A stretch of 64,000 bases of DNA from Synergistaceae bacterium (GTDB lineage: Bacteria; Synergistota; Synergistia; Synergistales; Aminobacteriaceae), in contig JAFSSM010000056.1 of the NCBI GenBank assembly GCA_017451025.1, positions 29,148 to 93,147 on the forward strand, in the 5' to 3' direction. The notes beneath the pieces were generated by a model. That model worked only from the letters and a program-made list of their open reading frames with translations. It did no database searches and had not been told where the DNA came from. The stretch's first letter is position 1. Each line of letters starts with the position of its first letter. Made by a program: the position numbers and the translations under genes. This document shows positions 34,840-41,087 of this stretch, piece after piece.

Positions 34840-37800
34840 CTAATGCTTTCGCGGAAACTTAAACGCTATCAGCGCAAGAATTACTGCCGGAATGATTGAC
34901 GGGTTAATCCTGGAACTGCAGCCCCCCATCAGAAGCGCAATAATCAGCTTCGTCAAGTAAATGCTGAACGGAGTACCAGAATTGAGCAGGCCGGCAAACA
35001 CAAACTCCTTCACGCCAAATTTATCCAGTTTGCCGCCGGATAATTCCCAAAGGCTTACCACTCCGTTTAGGATGAACGAACTCCTCACCTGTCCGGCCCC
35101 CGATACTTCCGAGTCATTCAGTGCCTCGATAACATAGTCATCAAACCCTTTTCCCTGAACTTCAGCCCATACATCATCGGGCAGAGTGTACGTGAAATAC
35201 ACAGCCTTGTAGCTTGTATCAACGCTCACTGTCGGCAAATTCAGGATTACTTCCCTGTCGTTGCTGGCGAAGTACTGCTTCATCGCCTCCGTAGGTTCGC
35301 GCGGATCGCCTAATCCCTCCTGCGTCAAATATTTCAACTCGCTGACATCGATTCCGAAATCGTCGGCTATAAGCTGTGCAAGTGCAGGGTTAATTCTCGA
35401 CAGGGGATCTGTGTCCTTGACATAACGCCCTCTCACCACCGTAATAACTCCTGTATTCGTACCAGTCAGCGAAGTAGCAATATATACCCTTCTGTTCGCC
35501 GGGACTGAATATATCCTGTTGAGGTTTTCGTCAAGCACAACAAAAGTTCCTCCGCCGAACTCATCCGACGTGTATTCTTGGGTGACCAAGTGTACGACCA
35601 GATTTTCCCGGGCGTTAATGTCTATGCTCATACCGAGCATCTCTATCTGTTCTCCGGGCTGTACATCATTGCTGAACGTGCACTGAACTACATATACTCC
35701 GTCTCCTGTCCCTGACTCTGTGATGGGCAGAAGTGCCGCACCATAGGCTCCAGTCTGGGCCAGAATTTCGCAGTCCGCAGGAGTAAAGTTCCATGTTCCA
35801 GGCAGGGCAATATCTGCGAACGAGTGCACATCCCCCGCAGTAACATCATCCCCTTTGCGTGCCCAGTTAGGCCATTCGGCGGCTACTTTCTCTGCAAGCT
35901 CAGGAGTAAGCGTGAAATCCGTTGTGCATCTCCCCGCAGGAGTGTAAATCTCAAGCGGTATACGCAGACGATAATCCGAAGTGTTGACCCCTGCCTGCGC
36001 ACAAGATGCCGCAATCAGAACCAGGCCAAGCACAGCAAAAAATCTCTTCTTCTTCGTGAATGCACAAATAGCCAGCAGTGCCGCCAGACCGAACCCGGCC
36101 TCACACCCTCCGCTGCTTCCTCCTGATGAAGCCTCCTCATTTGCCGAAGAGCCGCCCGAAGGTACAGTAACTACGCTCCTGTTCACTTGGCCCGCCGGAA
36201 GTTTTACCGCGAGGTATGCCTGCATACTTTCGGGGACAGAAGTAATTTCCCTGTAAGCCTCGTCCAAGAATACATACTCAGCACTTCCCTCGAGGCTCTG
36301 CACCGAAATACCATCCCCCACAGAAACATCATTGCCGAATACGCACATAAGCACGTACACTCCTTCTGCGGCAGGCCTGACCTCAGGGAGCTTGAACAGG
36401 ATATTTCTTCCCGAGCCGACTCCGTCAAGTTCACTCTCTGATGGTGTCCATGCCTCAGAGGTAATTATGCTGTGGAAAGTTCTGGCTGTTGCTCCGGGGA
36501 ATGCCTTAGTCAGAGCACTTACCAGGCCGTCATCGAGCGGAGTATTCGCGTACCAGAAACTGCCTCTTGCCGGAACGTAGAAGTGCAGTGAAGGCATACC
36601 GATAAACACGTTCATTGTTCCGGAGACTGCCGCACCCGTATAGCCGGTGTTGTACTGGTAGACGACGTGATGAGGTCTCGCGGCGAAAAGCGCGTCGCTT
36701 CCGGAAACCAGCGAAGCAATTTCCTGGCCTGTGCTGTCGTAAGCGGAGAGGGTCTCCACGTTTTCGAGGCTGCCCCCGACATATTCTGCAAGGTTCATTG
36801 CGTAGGGATAATCATTGCGCCCGGAAGGTACGACGTACAGGGTTTCGAAGTCGTTATCACAGCTGAGGGTGAGAAGTTCGCTGTTGTTTTTGAGGTCTAA
36901 GGCAGCTATATCGTTGCTGGCACAGTCCAGAATGAGCAGGGAAGAATTGCTGCTGAGGTCGAGTTCCTGCAGAAGGTTGAAAGTGCAGACAAGCTCGAGG
37001 AGGTTTGTGCTGCGGCTTACATCAAGTTCTGTGAGAAGGCATCCTTCGCAGTGAAGGGAGATTAGCTCGGGATTTGCGCTGAGATTCAGGACGCTTATCG
37101 GATTATTTGCGCAGGCCAGAGTGTCGAGGAGAGGGTTATTCGTAACGTCCAATTCTGTTATTTTGTTTTCGAAGCACATCAGCGTTTGGAGCAGGGGATT
37201 ATTGGCGACGTTAAGCTCCTTCAGGCTGTTGTTGTAACAGGTGAAGACGGCAAGTTCTTTGTTTTCGCTGACATCAATAGCTTTGAGCTGGTTTGTCCCG
37301 CACCAAAAATCTGCGAGTTTCGGACATCTGCTCAGGTCCAGCTCTGGAATTTCGTTTGAGTAGCAGTAGAGAGTTTCAAGAGAAGGTTTTTCGCCGAGCG
37401 TCAGCGAAGTGATTCTGTTGTCGCAGCACGAAATTATGTCCATGCTCGTGTTTCTGCTGAGATCCAGCGTCGTAATTCTGTTGTTGTCGCACAAAAGTCT
37501 CTCAAGCAGAGGATTACGGCTTGTGTCCAGCTCCGTTATTTGGTTGTTGTAACAGGCGAGCATCTTCAACACGCGGTTATCCCTGACATCAATAGCTTCC
37601 AGCCTGTTGTTCTGACAGAGAAGTTCGGTCAATATCGAGTTGCTGTTCACGTCAATAGCCTGGAGGTCGTTGCTGTAGCACGAAAGCTCCATAAGTTCGG
37701 GACATCCGGAAACATCGAGCGCACCAAGCCTGTTGTCGTAACAGTGCAGGATATTGATTGCGCTTTCTGTTCCGAGTATCAGTGAAGATAGATTATTGTT

Positions 37801-38136
37801 GTAGCAGTGGAGTATGCGGAGAGAAGTATTCTTGCTGACATCGAGAGTTTCCAGCTGGTTAAGCGAACAGTCGAGAGCCTGAAGGTTCGGGAAATTCTCA
37901 ATGCCTTTCAGCGATTCGATGTTAAGGCCGGGTAAATCAATGATGAAATCCACGCTCGAGGCTTCTTCTGTGCTGAGGATGTTATTGCTGTCAGCGTCAA
38001 ACTTCAGCATAACATATCCCCTAAAAGTGCTGTCAGGAAAATTTTCTGCGTCAATCGGGACATCTGCCCGCGCGCACAAGCACCCCAACAAAACCGCAAA
38101 AAGACAACCGACGGATACTGCAGCGAATTTCTTCAT
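34840..38136 (-). CDS. Leucine-rich repeat surface protein, apparent fusion of two CTERM proteins
   Basis: A 1098-aa exported protein. In order: signal peptide; an EF-hand-like loop FDADSNNILSTEEA; about eighteen 21-residue leucine-rich repeats with a regular Cys (LxxLDVSxNxxLxxLxC) to about residue 430; a beta domain with GVYVLMCVFGNDVSVGD; an internal Synergist-CTERM-like tail GGCEAGFGLAALLAICAF plus KKKR near residue 690; a second signal-like stretch FFAVLGLVLIAASCAQA; a second beta domain with related GVYVVQCTFSNDVQPGE; and a terminal tail GGCSSRINPSI...KFPRKH. Each half therefore resembles a full secreted protein. AGGAGG precedes ATG. Probably surface adhesion; ligand unknown. Confidence 0.82.
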   Translation of the reverse strand: MKKFAAVSVGCLFAVLLGCLCARADVPIDAENFPDSTFRGYVMLKFDADSNNILSTEEASSVDFIIDLPGLNIESLKGIENFPNLQALDCSLNQLETLDVSKNTSLRILHCYNNNLSSLILGTESAINILHCYDNRLGALDVSGCPELMELSCYSNDLQAIDVNSNSILTELLCQNNRLEAIDVRDNRVLKMLACYNNQITELDTSRNPLLERLLCDNNRITTLDLSRNTSMDIISCCDNRITSLTLGEKPSLETLYCYSNEIPELDLSRCPKLADFWCGTNQLKAIDVSENKELAVFTCYNNSLKELNVANNPLLQTLMCFENKITELDVTNNPLLDTLACANNPISVLNLSANPELISLHCEGCLLTELDVSRSTNLLELVCTFNLLQELDLSSNSSLLILDCASNDIAALDLKNNSELLTLSCDNDFETLYVVPSGRNDYPYAMNLAEYVGGSLENVETLSAYDSTGQEIASLVSGSDALFAARPHHVVYQYNTGYTGAAVSGTMNVFIGMPSLHFYVPARGSFWYANTPLDDGLVSALTKAFPGATARTFHSIITSEAWTPSESELDGVGSGRNILFKLPEVRPAAEGVYVLMCVFGNDVSVGDGISVQSLEGSAEYVFLDEAYREITSVPESMQAYLAVKLPAGQVNRSVVTVPSGGSSANEEASSGGSSGGCEAGFGLAALLAICAFTKKKRFFAVLGLVLIAASCAQAGVNTSDYRLRIPLEIYTPAGRCTTDFTLTPELAEKVAAEWPNWARKGDDVTAGDVHSFADIALPGTWNFTPADCEILAQTGAYGAALLPITESGTGDGVYVVQCTFSNDVQPGEQIEMLGMSIDINARENLVVHLVTQEYTSDEFGGGTFVVLDENLNRIYSVPANRRVYIATSLTGTNTGVITVVRGRYVKDTDPLSRINPALAQLIADDFGIDVSELKYLTQEGLGDPREPTEAMKQYFASNDREVILNLPTVSVDTSYKAVYFTYTLPDDVWAEVQGKGFDDYVIEALNDSEVSGAGQVRSSFILNGVVSLWELSGGKLDKFGVKEFVFAGLLNSGTPFSIYLTKLIIALLMGGCSSRINPSIIPAVILALIAFKFPRKH

Positions 38137-38177
38137 GTACACTACCTCCTAATTTTCATGCAACGATGGATATGCAC

Positions 38178-38234: not shown

Positions 38235-39311
38235 TTATGAAGCTCTCAGCTTGTACACAAACGCCAGCACCTCAGCAACTCCCTTGTACAGGTCTTCAGG
38301 AATCTCGTCGCCCACTTCTACGTTCTCGTAGAGTGCCCACGCCAGCGGCTTGTTCTCAATCACCGGAATCAGATTAGCGTGTGCAATATCACGTATGCGC
38401 TTGGCCAGGTAATCCCCTCCTTTTGCGATAACTACCGGTGCTCCCATAATTTCCCTGTTGTACTGCAGAGCTACGGCTATGTGCGTCGGGTTCGTGATTA
38501 CCACATCGGCCTTCGGAACATCCTGCATCATTCTCTGCTTTGCCATCTCGCGCTGTTTCTGGCGAATCTTCTGCTTTACTTGGGGGTCTCCCTCCATCTG
38601 CTTGTACTCGTCCTTGACTTCCTTCTTGCTCATCTTGATTGAGTTCTCGAAGTCCCATTTTTGATACCAGTAATCCGCAAACGCCATCACCAGAAGCATC
38701 AGCGCAAGCCTCATCGCTAAATTCCAGAGCATGTCCCAGAACTGTCCCGCACCAATTTTCAAGGGCATCTGCATAGTCTTTGAGGTTAGGGGAAGATAAT
38801 TGCGGATTGCGGTGTAAATCATTACGGCGAAGATAGATGCCTTGAGCAATCCCTTCATAAGTTCCACGCACGAACGCATAGATATAATCTTCTTCATGCC
38901 GGTAAACGGATTCAGGCGGTCGAAGTGCGGCCCGAAAGGTTCTCCGGTCATGGCGAAGCCCACCTGAGCAATAACGGTACATGTCGAGAACAGGACGACG
39001 AGTCCTCCGAGAGGGAGCCACGCGGCGAAATAACGCTTTATTGCTTCCCACGCGACGAACGCAAACCATCCGTCTTGAAGAATAGTTCTGTCGCCAATTG
39101 CCTGGAACATGAACCGGATTAACCCCGTGAGAGTTCTCCAGGTCATTGCGCCGAGCATCGCCAGGCCAAGAAGGGCAGTGATTATCGCTACGGCGGCGTT
39201 CAAGTCTTTGCTGACGCACACACGTCCTTCTTCGCGGACTTTCTCGCGCTTGTGAGGAGTGGCTTCTTCTGTACGTTCCTCGCCGAAAAATTGCAGATTA
39301 AAGTGCATCAT
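38235..39311 (-). CDS. flhB: Flagellar export apparatus protein FlhB
   Basis: Substrate-specificity switch of the flagellar type III export gate, 358 aa. Seen: the opening FNLQFFGEERTEEATPHKR, four membrane helices between about residues 35 and 210, and the cytoplasmic domain with the self-cleavage motif NPTH (DVVITNPTHIAVAL), then VIENKPLAWALY. The intact NPTH predicts normal autocleavage. Last flagellar gene of this operon, separated from fliR by the ankyrin insertion. Confidence 0.96.
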   Translation of the reverse strand: MMHFNLQFFGEERTEEATPHKREKVREEGRVCVSKDLNAAVAIITALLGLAMLGAMTWRTLTGLIRFMFQAIGDRTILQDGWFAFVAWEAIKRYFAAWLPLGGLVVLFSTCTVIAQVGFAMTGEPFGPHFDRLNPFTGMKKIISMRSCVELMKGLLKASIFAVMIYTAIRNYLPLTSKTMQMPLKIGAGQFWDMLWNLAMRLALMLLVMAFADYWYQKWDFENSIKMSKKEVKDEYKQMEGDPQVKQKIRQKQREMAKQRMMQDVPKADVVITNPTHIAVALQYNREIMGAPVVIAKGGDYLAKRIRDIAHANLIPVIENKPLAWALYENVEVGDEIPEDLYKGVAEVLAFVYKLRAS

Positions 39312-39328: not shown

Positions 39329-41087
39329 TTATAAGAAGCAGCAGACCGCCAACGAATACGAACCCTCATAATTTATATTCGCCCCGCAGCAGTCTCTGGC
39401 TGTCCTGCCGTTATTGTCCTTGAGCTTTGAGTAGGCTCCGGCTTTCAGCAGGTCCGTTACAATATCCGTGTAATTTCTTTGCACTGCAAGTATCAACGCG
39501 GTAAGGCCGTCTATGCTTTTGACATTTACTTTTGCTCCGGCCTTGAGCAATGTACTCACGCCTGAGTACGCGTATTTTTCAGTCGAGTTTGCAGCTGCCT
39601 GCATCAAGGCAGTGAAACCATATTTATCCTGCACATTTATATCTGCTCCAGCTTTGAGCAACACTTCCACAATCTTGGAATTGTAAGAGGCATAAAAAAT
39701 AGGAGTTTCACCGTTGCTATTCCTCACATTGACATTAGCTCTTGCTCTAATTAACGTGTTCACTATCTCAACATCTGAATTATAGTAACGTACCGCTTGA
39801 TGTATGGGTGTCATGCCTTCATCATCCCTGACATTAACTTTTGCTCCGGCCCTGATAAGTGCATTTATAATTTTAATATTCCCGGCACCTATTGCACAAA
39901 AGATAGGGAAATCCCCATTTTTATTGGGAATGTTTACATCTGCTCCAGCCCTGATGAGCAAATCTACCGCTTCAGCATTATCAAAATATGTAGCCCTAAA
40001 GACAGGAGTTTCACCGTCACCATCTCTGACATTCACCTTTGCCCCGGCTTTCAGCAAGCAGTCCATTACCTGTGTTTGTTTTGCCGCATAAAATACAGGA
40101 GACATGCCATATTTATCTTTATAGTTCACATCTGCACCCGCTTTGACTAAGGCTTTCACGGCTTCGATATTCTCAATGTTAATTAACAATGGAGTATCAC
40201 CGTTTTGGGCCTTGACGTTGGGATTTGCTCCGGCTTTCAGAAGCATCACAATAATATCTGTATCGTCCGTAAAGAGAAGTGGAGAATTAGAGTCTGGATT
40301 GATTACTGCTCCATGTTGCAGAAATGTGTTTACTATATCCTTCCTGCCCCAAAATGCCGCAAGAGAAAGAGGAGTGTTGCGGTTTTCATCCACTACATTG
40401 ACATCAGCACCTGATTTAACAAGATAGTTCACGATTTCCTCATTATGCGCATTAACGCTTGCAGGGGTTTTGTTCCCGATAAATCTGTCCCAGAAATCGC
40501 CTTACACTTTGAGATGAACCAAGACCATTTTTGACGCTGATGTACTCGCTTGACGCCCGGCTTAGTGCCATTGTCAGGGCATTTCCGCCTGTTTGGGATT
40601 TAGCTTTGATGTCCGCTCCGGAAGACAATAATAATTTAAGGCACTCCAAGTTATCCATAAGCATTATTGGTGTCATTCCTCGATGGTCATGTATGTTTAC
40701 GTATGCTCCCTGCTTAATCAGGAAGCGTACAATATCGGGTTTAGGATTCCTGTTTAACGAGTAGGCAAGCAAAGCGTATTCAACAACTGCTCCGCGTTTA
40801 ATGAAATCCTGAATAGCAACAATAGTTATATCAGAGTCTTCGAGGTCGATGAAAAATTTCTGTTGAGTGCTGGAATTGTAATACTTAGAATAATAATCAT
40901 AATAATATTTAGCACTCTCAACGGCCAGGTCTGTGAGAAAATCCTGAACCGCATCTTGTTCAAGTGCCCATTTGCCCAGATTTATGGCAAAATTGATGAG
41001 TTCTCTAGTAAAGCCATGGGCGGCTTGCACAAATATAAACGACATACAAAGAATTAGCACAATGCAGCGAGTAAATTTTTTCCCCAT
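39329..41087 (-). pseudogene. Secreted ankyrin-repeat protein, frameshifted
   Basis: Two frames make one ankyrin protein. The 5' part (41087 to 40452) has a signal peptide (CIVLILCMSFIFVQAAHG) and early repeats ending SSQSVRRFLGQIY. The 3' part (to 39329) carries about nine repeats of the NTPLSLAAF / LLKAGADVN type. The 3' frame is open upstream of its GTG at 40432 through NAHNEEIVNYLVKSGADVN, continuing the repeat, so one indel between about 40452 and 40506 splits the gene. A GAGGAA before that GTG leaves independent translation possible. It sits between fliR and flhB. Confidence 0.68.

What the first reader, a model, noticed from the sequence alone, without database searches (positions are those of the whole stretch)
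35980..36135. Two CTERM-sorted surface proteins joined through a shared tail/signal segment
Inside the 1098-aa LRR protein the sequence runs GGCEAGFGLAALLAICAF, KKKR, then FFAVLGLVLIAASCAQA. The first stretch is a complete Synergist-CTERM-like sorting tail; the basic KKKR plus the next hydrophobic stretch is a complete signal peptide. The real C terminus has a second GGC tail ending in basic residues, and both halves carry a related beta domain (GVYVLMCVFGND and GVYVVQCTFSND). The codon before the second KKKR is ACG, one base from ATG. Two neighbouring paralogues seem to have fused without losing either signal. How a protein with an internal sorting tail is handled is unknown: it may be cut there into two products.
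Basis: partly seen in the sequence, partly recalled or inferred. Interest (0 to 1): 0.78.

Follow-up and report, generated by a model that had tools for sequence, protein, structure and literature searches.

The report
Bacterial surface polyprotein with built-in cuts
One bacterial gene encodes two likely surface proteins in a single unbroken reading frame, joined by a predicted anchoring tail and a second predicted export signal where the chain would be cut in two, and the same kind of joint recurs in unrelated gene pairs of its relatives.

Summary
Window ORF 34840-38136(-), 1098 aa, runs without a stop through GGC, helix, KKKR, helix, AQA. It is not a local accident. Its genome has four such ORFs; five of 43 genus genomes have ten. 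All 14 non-self proteins of the first database search carry the joint. Three other genomes keep the halves as adjacent genes. A midpoint-rooted tree puts separate forms outside a large fused clade, plus one further fusion. GGC and the Ala ending helix 2 are invariant in 16 aligned joints from four families. The window has no in-frame start codon at the joint. The genome encodes MrtS, the predicted Synerg-CTERM protease, and signal peptidase I. Joint-only profiles, each hit then read, found the same joint in unrelated pairs: CAP-CAP, Ig with LRR/lectin/papain, beta-helix, carboxypeptidase M14. My reading is a surface polyprotein cut twice, losing a hairpin of about 40 residues. Cleavage is predicted, not shown. 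Single fusions with internal sorting tails are known (HVO_0405, MXAN_5598). The repeated pairing of internal tail with internal signal peptide, in several families of one lineage, did not turn up in my paper searches.

The parts
34840..38136 (-). Fused ORF, 1098 aa (stop 34840-34842, ATG 38134-38136)
38144..38150 (-). Shine-Dalgarno AGGAGGT of the ORF
38065..38136 (-). N-terminal signal peptide, aa 1-24 (...CARA|DVPID)
   Evidence: cleavage inferred from sequence
36817..37941 (-). Leucine-rich repeats (PF12799), about aa 66-440, borders approximate
36154..36366 (-). First copy of the shared beta module (GVYVLMCVFGND), about aa 591-661
36103..36111 (-). GGC motif of the internal sorting tail, aa 676-678; invariant in 15 of 15 fused proteins aligned
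36055..36102 (-). Hydrophobic helix 1 of the internal tail, aa 679-694 (aa 694 = ACG codon)
36043..36054 (-). KKKR, predicted cytoplasmic turn shared by tail and signal peptide, aa 695-698
35992..36042 (-). Hydrophobic helix 2, internal signal peptide ending AQA, aa 699-715; predicted signal peptidase I site after A715
34843..35991 (-). Predicted second product, aa 716-1098
35428..35703 (-). Second copy of the shared beta module (GVYVVQCTFSND), about aa 812-903
34843..34926 (-). Terminal GGC tail, aa 1071-1098 (divergent; not matched by TIGR04564)

Best explanation
The ORF encodes two likely surface proteins in one stop-free frame, and its middle segment (GGC, helix, KKKR, helix, AQA) is predicted to be cut twice, by the sorting protease MrtS and by signal peptidase I, so that one translation would yield two mature proteins. 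Shown here: the open frame, the anatomy of the joint, its retention in divergent copies, the separate-gene relatives, the same kind of joint in unrelated gene pairs, and genes for both proteases. Inferred: the N-terminal signal peptide exports the LRR half. Helix 1 stops transfer, with KKKR in the cytoplasm. Helix 2 restarts export, and signal peptidase I cuts after AQA. By analogy with MYXO-CTERM sorting, the GGC cysteine would be lipid-modified and MrtS would cut beside it, discarding a hairpin of about 40 residues. The second product would be anchored by its own GGC tail. The effect would be equal output and joint delivery of two partner proteins.
For: Four fused copies in this genome and ten in five of 43 genus genomes. 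All 14 non-self proteins are read-through. In 16 joints from the LRR family and three unrelated families, aligned without any site rule, the only invariant columns are GGC, one Gly, and the Ala at window aa 715, the predicted -1 residue (10 of 10 in the LRR family). In 15 aligned fused proteins the only invariant columns between P584 and D721 are G676, G677, C678 and G681. GGC to predicted site is 35-44 aa in 26 rows. Second genes of separate pairs begin with a signal peptide at the same place, and the first genes of those pairs match the window's N half. No Shine-Dalgarno precedes an in-frame start at the joint in 10 of 10 DNA loci, against 5 of 5 true first-gene starts. MrtS: 254 bits, cut-off 130, in 40 of 43 genus genomes; signal peptidase I present. 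Joints in unrelated families. An archaeal fusion with an internal sorting signal is cut at it (PMC7157517, passages).
Against: No cleavage, lipid or localisation data. The site picker accepts only small letters at -1 and -3, so finding a site in 26 of 26 rows is partly by rule. Strict sites (A at -1, A/S/V/C/G/T at -3) number 22 of 26, against a shuffled mean of 17.4, reached in 73 of 2000 shuffles; the mean score was reached in 7 of 2000. The motif support is moderate. Junction dN/dS is 0.23-0.69 in four CAP pairs, weaker than in the halves (0.10-0.19), and undefined in two. One of three separate second genes (G027) also lacks a Shine-Dalgarno, so its absence is not proof. The window's terminal tail is not recognised by TIGR04564, and the whole-protein score of the internal tail is under cut-off. 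P0025 has SNC for GGC. The AlphaFold2 models are weak at the joint.
Confidence: 0.65

Rival explanations
1. The middle segment is an uncut helical hairpin: the protein stays one chain, anchored in the membrane by two crossing helices, with both domains outside.
For: Topology fits (helix, KKKR, helix), and the joined state has been kept through much divergence, as expected if the link itself matters. The cleavage-site statistics are only moderate.
Against: A plain hairpin needs neither an invariant GGC nor an invariant Ala at the end of helix 2 in 16 of 16 joints. Separate-gene relatives have the same signals at the same places.
Confidence: 0.2
2. The halves are made separately by internal translation initiation, and the missing stop codon matters little.
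For: Two-gene forms overlap or abut with a start at this place. Nine of ten LRR-family joints hold some in-frame ATG/GTG/TTG. G041:C126 and G031:C26 keep an ATG. The four CAP joints have GGAG-like or AGGA stretches upstream of an in-frame start, near the Gly codons of the motif. G027's true second gene lacks a Shine-Dalgarno too.
Against: The window's own joint has no in-frame start before the end of KKKR, and none of the ten LRR-family loci has a Shine-Dalgarno there. Without a stop, translation of the first half runs on regardless.
Confidence: 0.09
3. The joint is a non-functional relic, or an assembly or sequencing artefact in metagenome-assembled genomes.
For: The eight named related records come from MAGs or uncultured isolates; G005:C47 has a frameshift about 100 aa after the joint.
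Against: The joint is in 27 LRR-family sequences (26 rows plus G005:C47; some are fragments or near-duplicates), in 12 of 12 fused CAP-CAP clusters, one on a 169-kb contig, and in further families.
Confidence: 0.06

Closest known systems
HVO_0405 of Haloferax volcanii (archaeosortase ArtA substrate)
   Same: A gene fusion with a tripartite sorting signal in the middle, cut there in an ArtA-dependent way (PMC7157517, passages read).
   Different: An archaeon, the PGF motif and ArtA instead of GGC and MrtS. It is described as one strain-specific fusion. The passages read mention no internal signal peptide or second sorting tail.
MXAN_5598 of Myxococcus xanthus (internal MYXO-CTERM)
   Same: A bacterial ORF with an internal Cys-type sorting motif; the authors propose gene fusion and processing of the N-terminal part (PMC11980579, passages read).
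   Different: One named case (the paper says internal motifs are rare); its C-terminal part is an outer-membrane barrel with OmpA domains. Here the joint pairs the tail with a signal peptide and recurs in several families.
Synerg-CTERM proteins and MrtS (TIGR04564, NF040589; Haft 2024, paper not held, seen only as a reference entry)
   Same: GGC tail, hydrophobic stretch, basic end, MrtS in the genome.
   Different: The tail is normally terminal; here it is internal and doubles as the front end of a signal peptide.
FbcH cytochrome b/c1 precursor of Bradyrhizobium (recalled; no paper on it found)
   Same: Recalled as a bacterial precursor with an internal signal sequence cut by signal peptidase.
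   Different: Respiratory proteins, no sorting tail (recalled).

Membership tests
Synerg-CTERM sorted protein (TIGR04564) | Match of the tail to the model over its cut-off (22.5 bits) | tested here: inconclusive
   Internal tail 24.2 bits in the genome search, 19.3 in the whole-protein scan; terminal tail not matched in either
Synerg-CTERM sorted protein (TIGR04564) | Tail located at the C terminus | tested here: not met
   GGC at aa 676-678 of 1098
Synerg-CTERM sorted protein (TIGR04564) | MrtS encoded in the genome | tested here: met
   254 bits against a 130 cut-off; 40 of 43 genus genomes
Synerg-CTERM sorted protein (TIGR04564) | N-terminal signal peptide | tested here: met
   MKKFAAVSVGCLFAVLLGCLCARA|DVPID by sequence and hydropathy only
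Internal-sorting-tail fusion, HVO_0405 / MXAN_5598 type | Tripartite signal inside one ORF, with domains on both sides | tested here: met
Internal-sorting-tail fusion, HVO_0405 / MXAN_5598 type | Relatives with the halves as separate genes | tested here: met
   G014, G027, G041: second genes, first genes match the N half (34% over 650 aa, 28% over 128 aa on a cut contig, 36% over 643 aa)
Internal-sorting-tail fusion, HVO_0405 / MXAN_5598 type | Cleavage at the internal signal by the sorting enzyme | not testable with these tools
   needs protein work
Precursor with internal signal peptide | Basic n-region, hydrophobic core, small-x-small site inside the ORF | tested here: met
   (moderate against shuffles); Ala invariant in 16 of 16 aligned joints
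Leucine-rich repeat protein | PF12799 over its cut-off | tested here: met
   62.9 bits against 27

The most novel reading that the evidence does not exclude
This Synergistota lineage repeatedly writes pairs of surface proteins as stop-free polyproteins, using one compact module (sorting tail plus signal peptide sharing a KKKR-type turn) that two membrane proteases cut out, giving equal and co-localised partner proteins without a second start codon.
Probability: 0.5. Interest if true: 0.85.

Novelty: new variant of a known kind. Interest (0 to 1): 0.74.

Why it matters
From general knowledge: bacteria usually balance partner proteins through operons, and stop-free polyproteins are associated mainly with viruses. 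A lineage that repeatedly fuses sorted surface proteins through a removable hairpin would show how an internal sorting tail and an internal signal peptide are handled together. It offers natural substrates for asking whether MrtS-type proteases act on internal tails, since full-length and cut forms differ greatly in size.

Tried and rejected
Sequencing error or chance read-through: rejected because of many independent copies. Recent loss of an ATG at ACG: not supported, since the other fused loci have other codons there. Fused form as one clade: rejected by the AU test (p 4.9e-13), though the groups were named after a first tree had been seen. That first tree held a wrongly cut row (P0029); the second dropped P0015, P0028 and P0029 and counted P0024 as unknown. 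My first cleavage-site picker chose sites too early and was replaced; the second can return only small letters, so the rule-free alignment column is the better evidence. Fold of the C half: no PDB match at E <= 0.001, on a weak model. Literature: the listings, and the passages read, showed no description of internal Synerg-CTERM tails; the library lacks most subscription papers, Haft 2024 among them. FbcH is recalled only.

Full report
OBSERVATION. The window holds one ORF, 34840-38136(-), of 1098 aa from the ATG at 38136, with AGGAGGT upstream. Hydropathy gives an N-terminal signal peptide, a helix pair at aa 677-717 split by KKKR, and a terminal hydrophobic tail. Pfam finds leucine-rich repeats in the first half (62.9 bits, cut-off 27). 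Of the NCBIfam models the only sorting tail that matches is Synergist_CTERM (TIGR04564), at the internal GGC: 19.3 bits with the whole protein and 24.2 in the genome search, cut-off 22.5. The terminal GGC tail is not matched by that model. The halves share a beta module (30% over 94 aa, E 3e-9) and are not full paralogues.

RECURRENCE IN THE FAMILY. In the window's genome (G000, 2.35 Mb) four ORFs have the same joint: C42 (the window), C41, C46 and C20. Of 43 genomes of the genus, 14 have a match to the C half at E <= 1e-20. Ten loci in five genomes (G000 four, G039 two, G005 two, G033, G010) run through the joint without a stop; one of these, G005:C47, has a frameshift about 100 aa later. Three genomes (G014, G027, G041) have two adjacent genes instead. 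G021:C68 is cut by its contig end and cannot be classed; the other matches cover the C half without the joint. In the phylum search (185 genomes) 15 match, 14 of the genus plus G053, which has the C-terminal part only. At looser E-values some other genomes match by the tail alone. In the protein database all 14 non-self hits are read-through (that search scored only the 7995 best candidates and only lengths near the fused protein's). The C-half search (15 hits, one already seen) gave eight fused forms, two proteins that start with their own signal peptide (P0020, P0022), and five unclear or partial ones (P0016, P0023, P0024, P0026, P0027).

TWO-GENE FORMS. In G014 the first gene ends ...RKGRNA, TAA, directly followed by ATG of the second. 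In G027 TAA, one base, ATG. In G041 the genes overlap in ATGATTAA, with AGGAG before the ATG, and the first tail reads SGC, not GGC. The first genes match the window's N half: 34% over 650 aa (G014), 28% over 128 aa (G027, contig-cut), 36% over 643 aa (G041). The second genes begin with a signal peptide where the fused proteins have helix 2. The cleaned tree of the C half (31 rows: 23 fused, 5 separate, 3 unknown; P0020 and P0022 classed by protein start alone) puts G041, G014 and P0020 apart from the rest (100/99) and shows a main clade of 22 fused and 3 unknown rows (89/93). P0025, fused with a different turn (KKVQAIRTKTK), sits with the separate forms G027 and P0022 (100/100; 96/93). One clade of fused forms is rejected (AU p 4.9e-13); at least two changes are needed. 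The root is midpoint only.

THE JOINT. In a rule-free alignment of ten LRR-family joints the invariant columns are GGC, a Gly, and A55 = window A715, the predicted -1 residue; with six joints of three unrelated families added, the same five columns stay invariant in 16 of 16. In 26 fused rows a rule-based picker, which accepts only small letters at -1 and -3, chose A (24) or G (2) at -1 and A 13, S 8, V 2, C 1, L 2 at -3; GGC to site is 35-44 aa. Strict sites number 22 of 26, shuffled mean 17.4, reached in 73 of 2000 shuffles; the mean score was reached in 7 of 2000. So the site is supported moderately by that test. GGC is kept in 25 of the 26 (P0025 has SNC). In 15 aligned fused proteins (some N-terminally incomplete) the only invariant columns between P584 and D721 are G676, G677, C678 and G681. 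In ten DNA loci no Shine-Dalgarno match of 4 or more letters precedes an in-frame start at the joint; the window has no such start at all. Five of five first-gene starts examined have one, and two of three separate second genes (G041, G014, not G027).

ENZYMES. The genome has one CPBP protein by Pfam PF02517. It is MrtS by NCBIfam (254 bits, cut-off 130), and 40 of 43 genus genomes have MrtS (the three without are 64-86% complete). Signal peptidase I is present (166.7 bits, cut-off 47).

BEYOND THE FAMILY. A profile of the joint alone, built only from ten LRR-family loci, was searched in the genus (the list was cut short). I fetched the nine other listed hits that had no stop and reached model position 51 or beyond, and one shorter hit. 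The nine run through the joint; the shorter one (G007:C17) is an ordinary terminal tail. The nine are four CAP-CAP fusions (G010, G028, G001, G004; CAP domain confirmed by Pfam in the two scanned, twice each), an Ig-domain protein (He_PIG; LRR only below cut-off) joined to one with LRR, C-type lectin, papain and lectin-like domains (G022; near copy in G039), a beta-helix pair (G011), and two that keep an ATG at the joint and may be overlapping genes (G031, G041). With a 16-row profile over 185 genomes, 17 hits scored 68-83 bits and the next 44.7; 16 of the 17 are rows of the profile itself, the other is the G039 near copy, and at most 34 candidates per genome were scored. A weaker hit, G157:C48 (36.2 bits), in another family of the order, is a 2045-aa ORF with signal peptide, internal joint and terminal GGC tail; it has Peptidase_M14 over cut-off and Big_2 just under. 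For CAP proteins, 25 of 43 genus genomes match; four are fused and the other 21 show only single-length hits. In the protein database 12 of 12 fused clusters (P0030-P0041) carry the joint and none has GGC in its last 60 residues, so the second product there would be untailed; P0095 (precomputed Pfam PF01841, PF26918) carries a joint too. Junction dN/dS in CAP pairs is 0.23-0.69 (four of six pairs defined), against 0.10-0.19 in the halves. CAP joints have GGAG-like or AGGA letters upstream of in-frame starts, near the Gly codons of the motif.

MECHANISM. Inferred: export by the first signal peptide, stop-transfer at helix 1, KKKR inside, re-export by helix 2, signal peptidase cut after AQA, and cut beside the GGC cysteine by MrtS after lipid attachment, as proposed for MYXO-CTERM (PMC11980579, passages read). 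None of these steps is shown here. The AlphaFold2 models predict two short helices there at low confidence.

PRECEDENT AND NOVELTY. HVO_0405 is a gene fusion cut at an internal sorting signal (PMC7157517, passages). MXAN_5598 is proposed to be alike (PMC11980579, passages and reference list). Papers of the other searches were seen as listings only. So the principle is known from single cases; its repeated use together with an internal signal peptide, in several families of one lineage, is the new part as far as these searches reach. After checking I lowered the main confidence from 0.66 to 0.65 and raised the hairpin rival to 0.20, because the site picker's rule weakens its count.

Noticed in passing
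L160, L161, L162, L165 (G010:C15, G028:C8, G001:C112, G004:C43): CAP-CAP tandem proteins fused through the same internal tail plus signal peptide; the second half has no terminal GGC tail.
   Followed up: yes
L199:1387-7521 (G157:C48): 2045-aa ORF of another Synergistota family with an internal GGC joint and a terminal GGC tail; Peptidase_M14 over cut-off, Big_2 just under.
   Followed up: partly
L201 (G022:C10), L167 (G039:C51): Ig-domain protein fused to one with LRR, C-type lectin, papain and lectin-like domains through the same joint.
   Followed up: partly
L203 (G011:C4): 2200-aa ORF with a beta-helix region, an internal GGC joint and a terminal GGC tail.
   Followed up: partly
L164 (G041:C126) and L202 (G031:C26): Stop-free joints that keep an in-frame ATG: possible intermediates between two genes and a fusion.
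   Followed up: partly
P0095: 714-aa protein (precomputed Pfam PF01841, PF26918) with an internal Synerg-CTERM-like joint.
   Followed up: no
L080 (G005:C47): Fused LRR-family ORF with a frameshift about 100 aa after the joint.
   Followed up: partly
G000:C7:188-262, C18:188-262, C55:122638-122712: Three Synergist_CTERM hits of identical score (33.4 bits); those on C7 and C18 lie at the same coordinates near their contig ends. They may be one repeated sequence split by assembly.
   Followed up: no
window 39329-40432 (-): Ankyrin-repeat-like protein beside an FlhB-like gene (38235-39311); names from reading the translations, no family search run.
   Followed up: no
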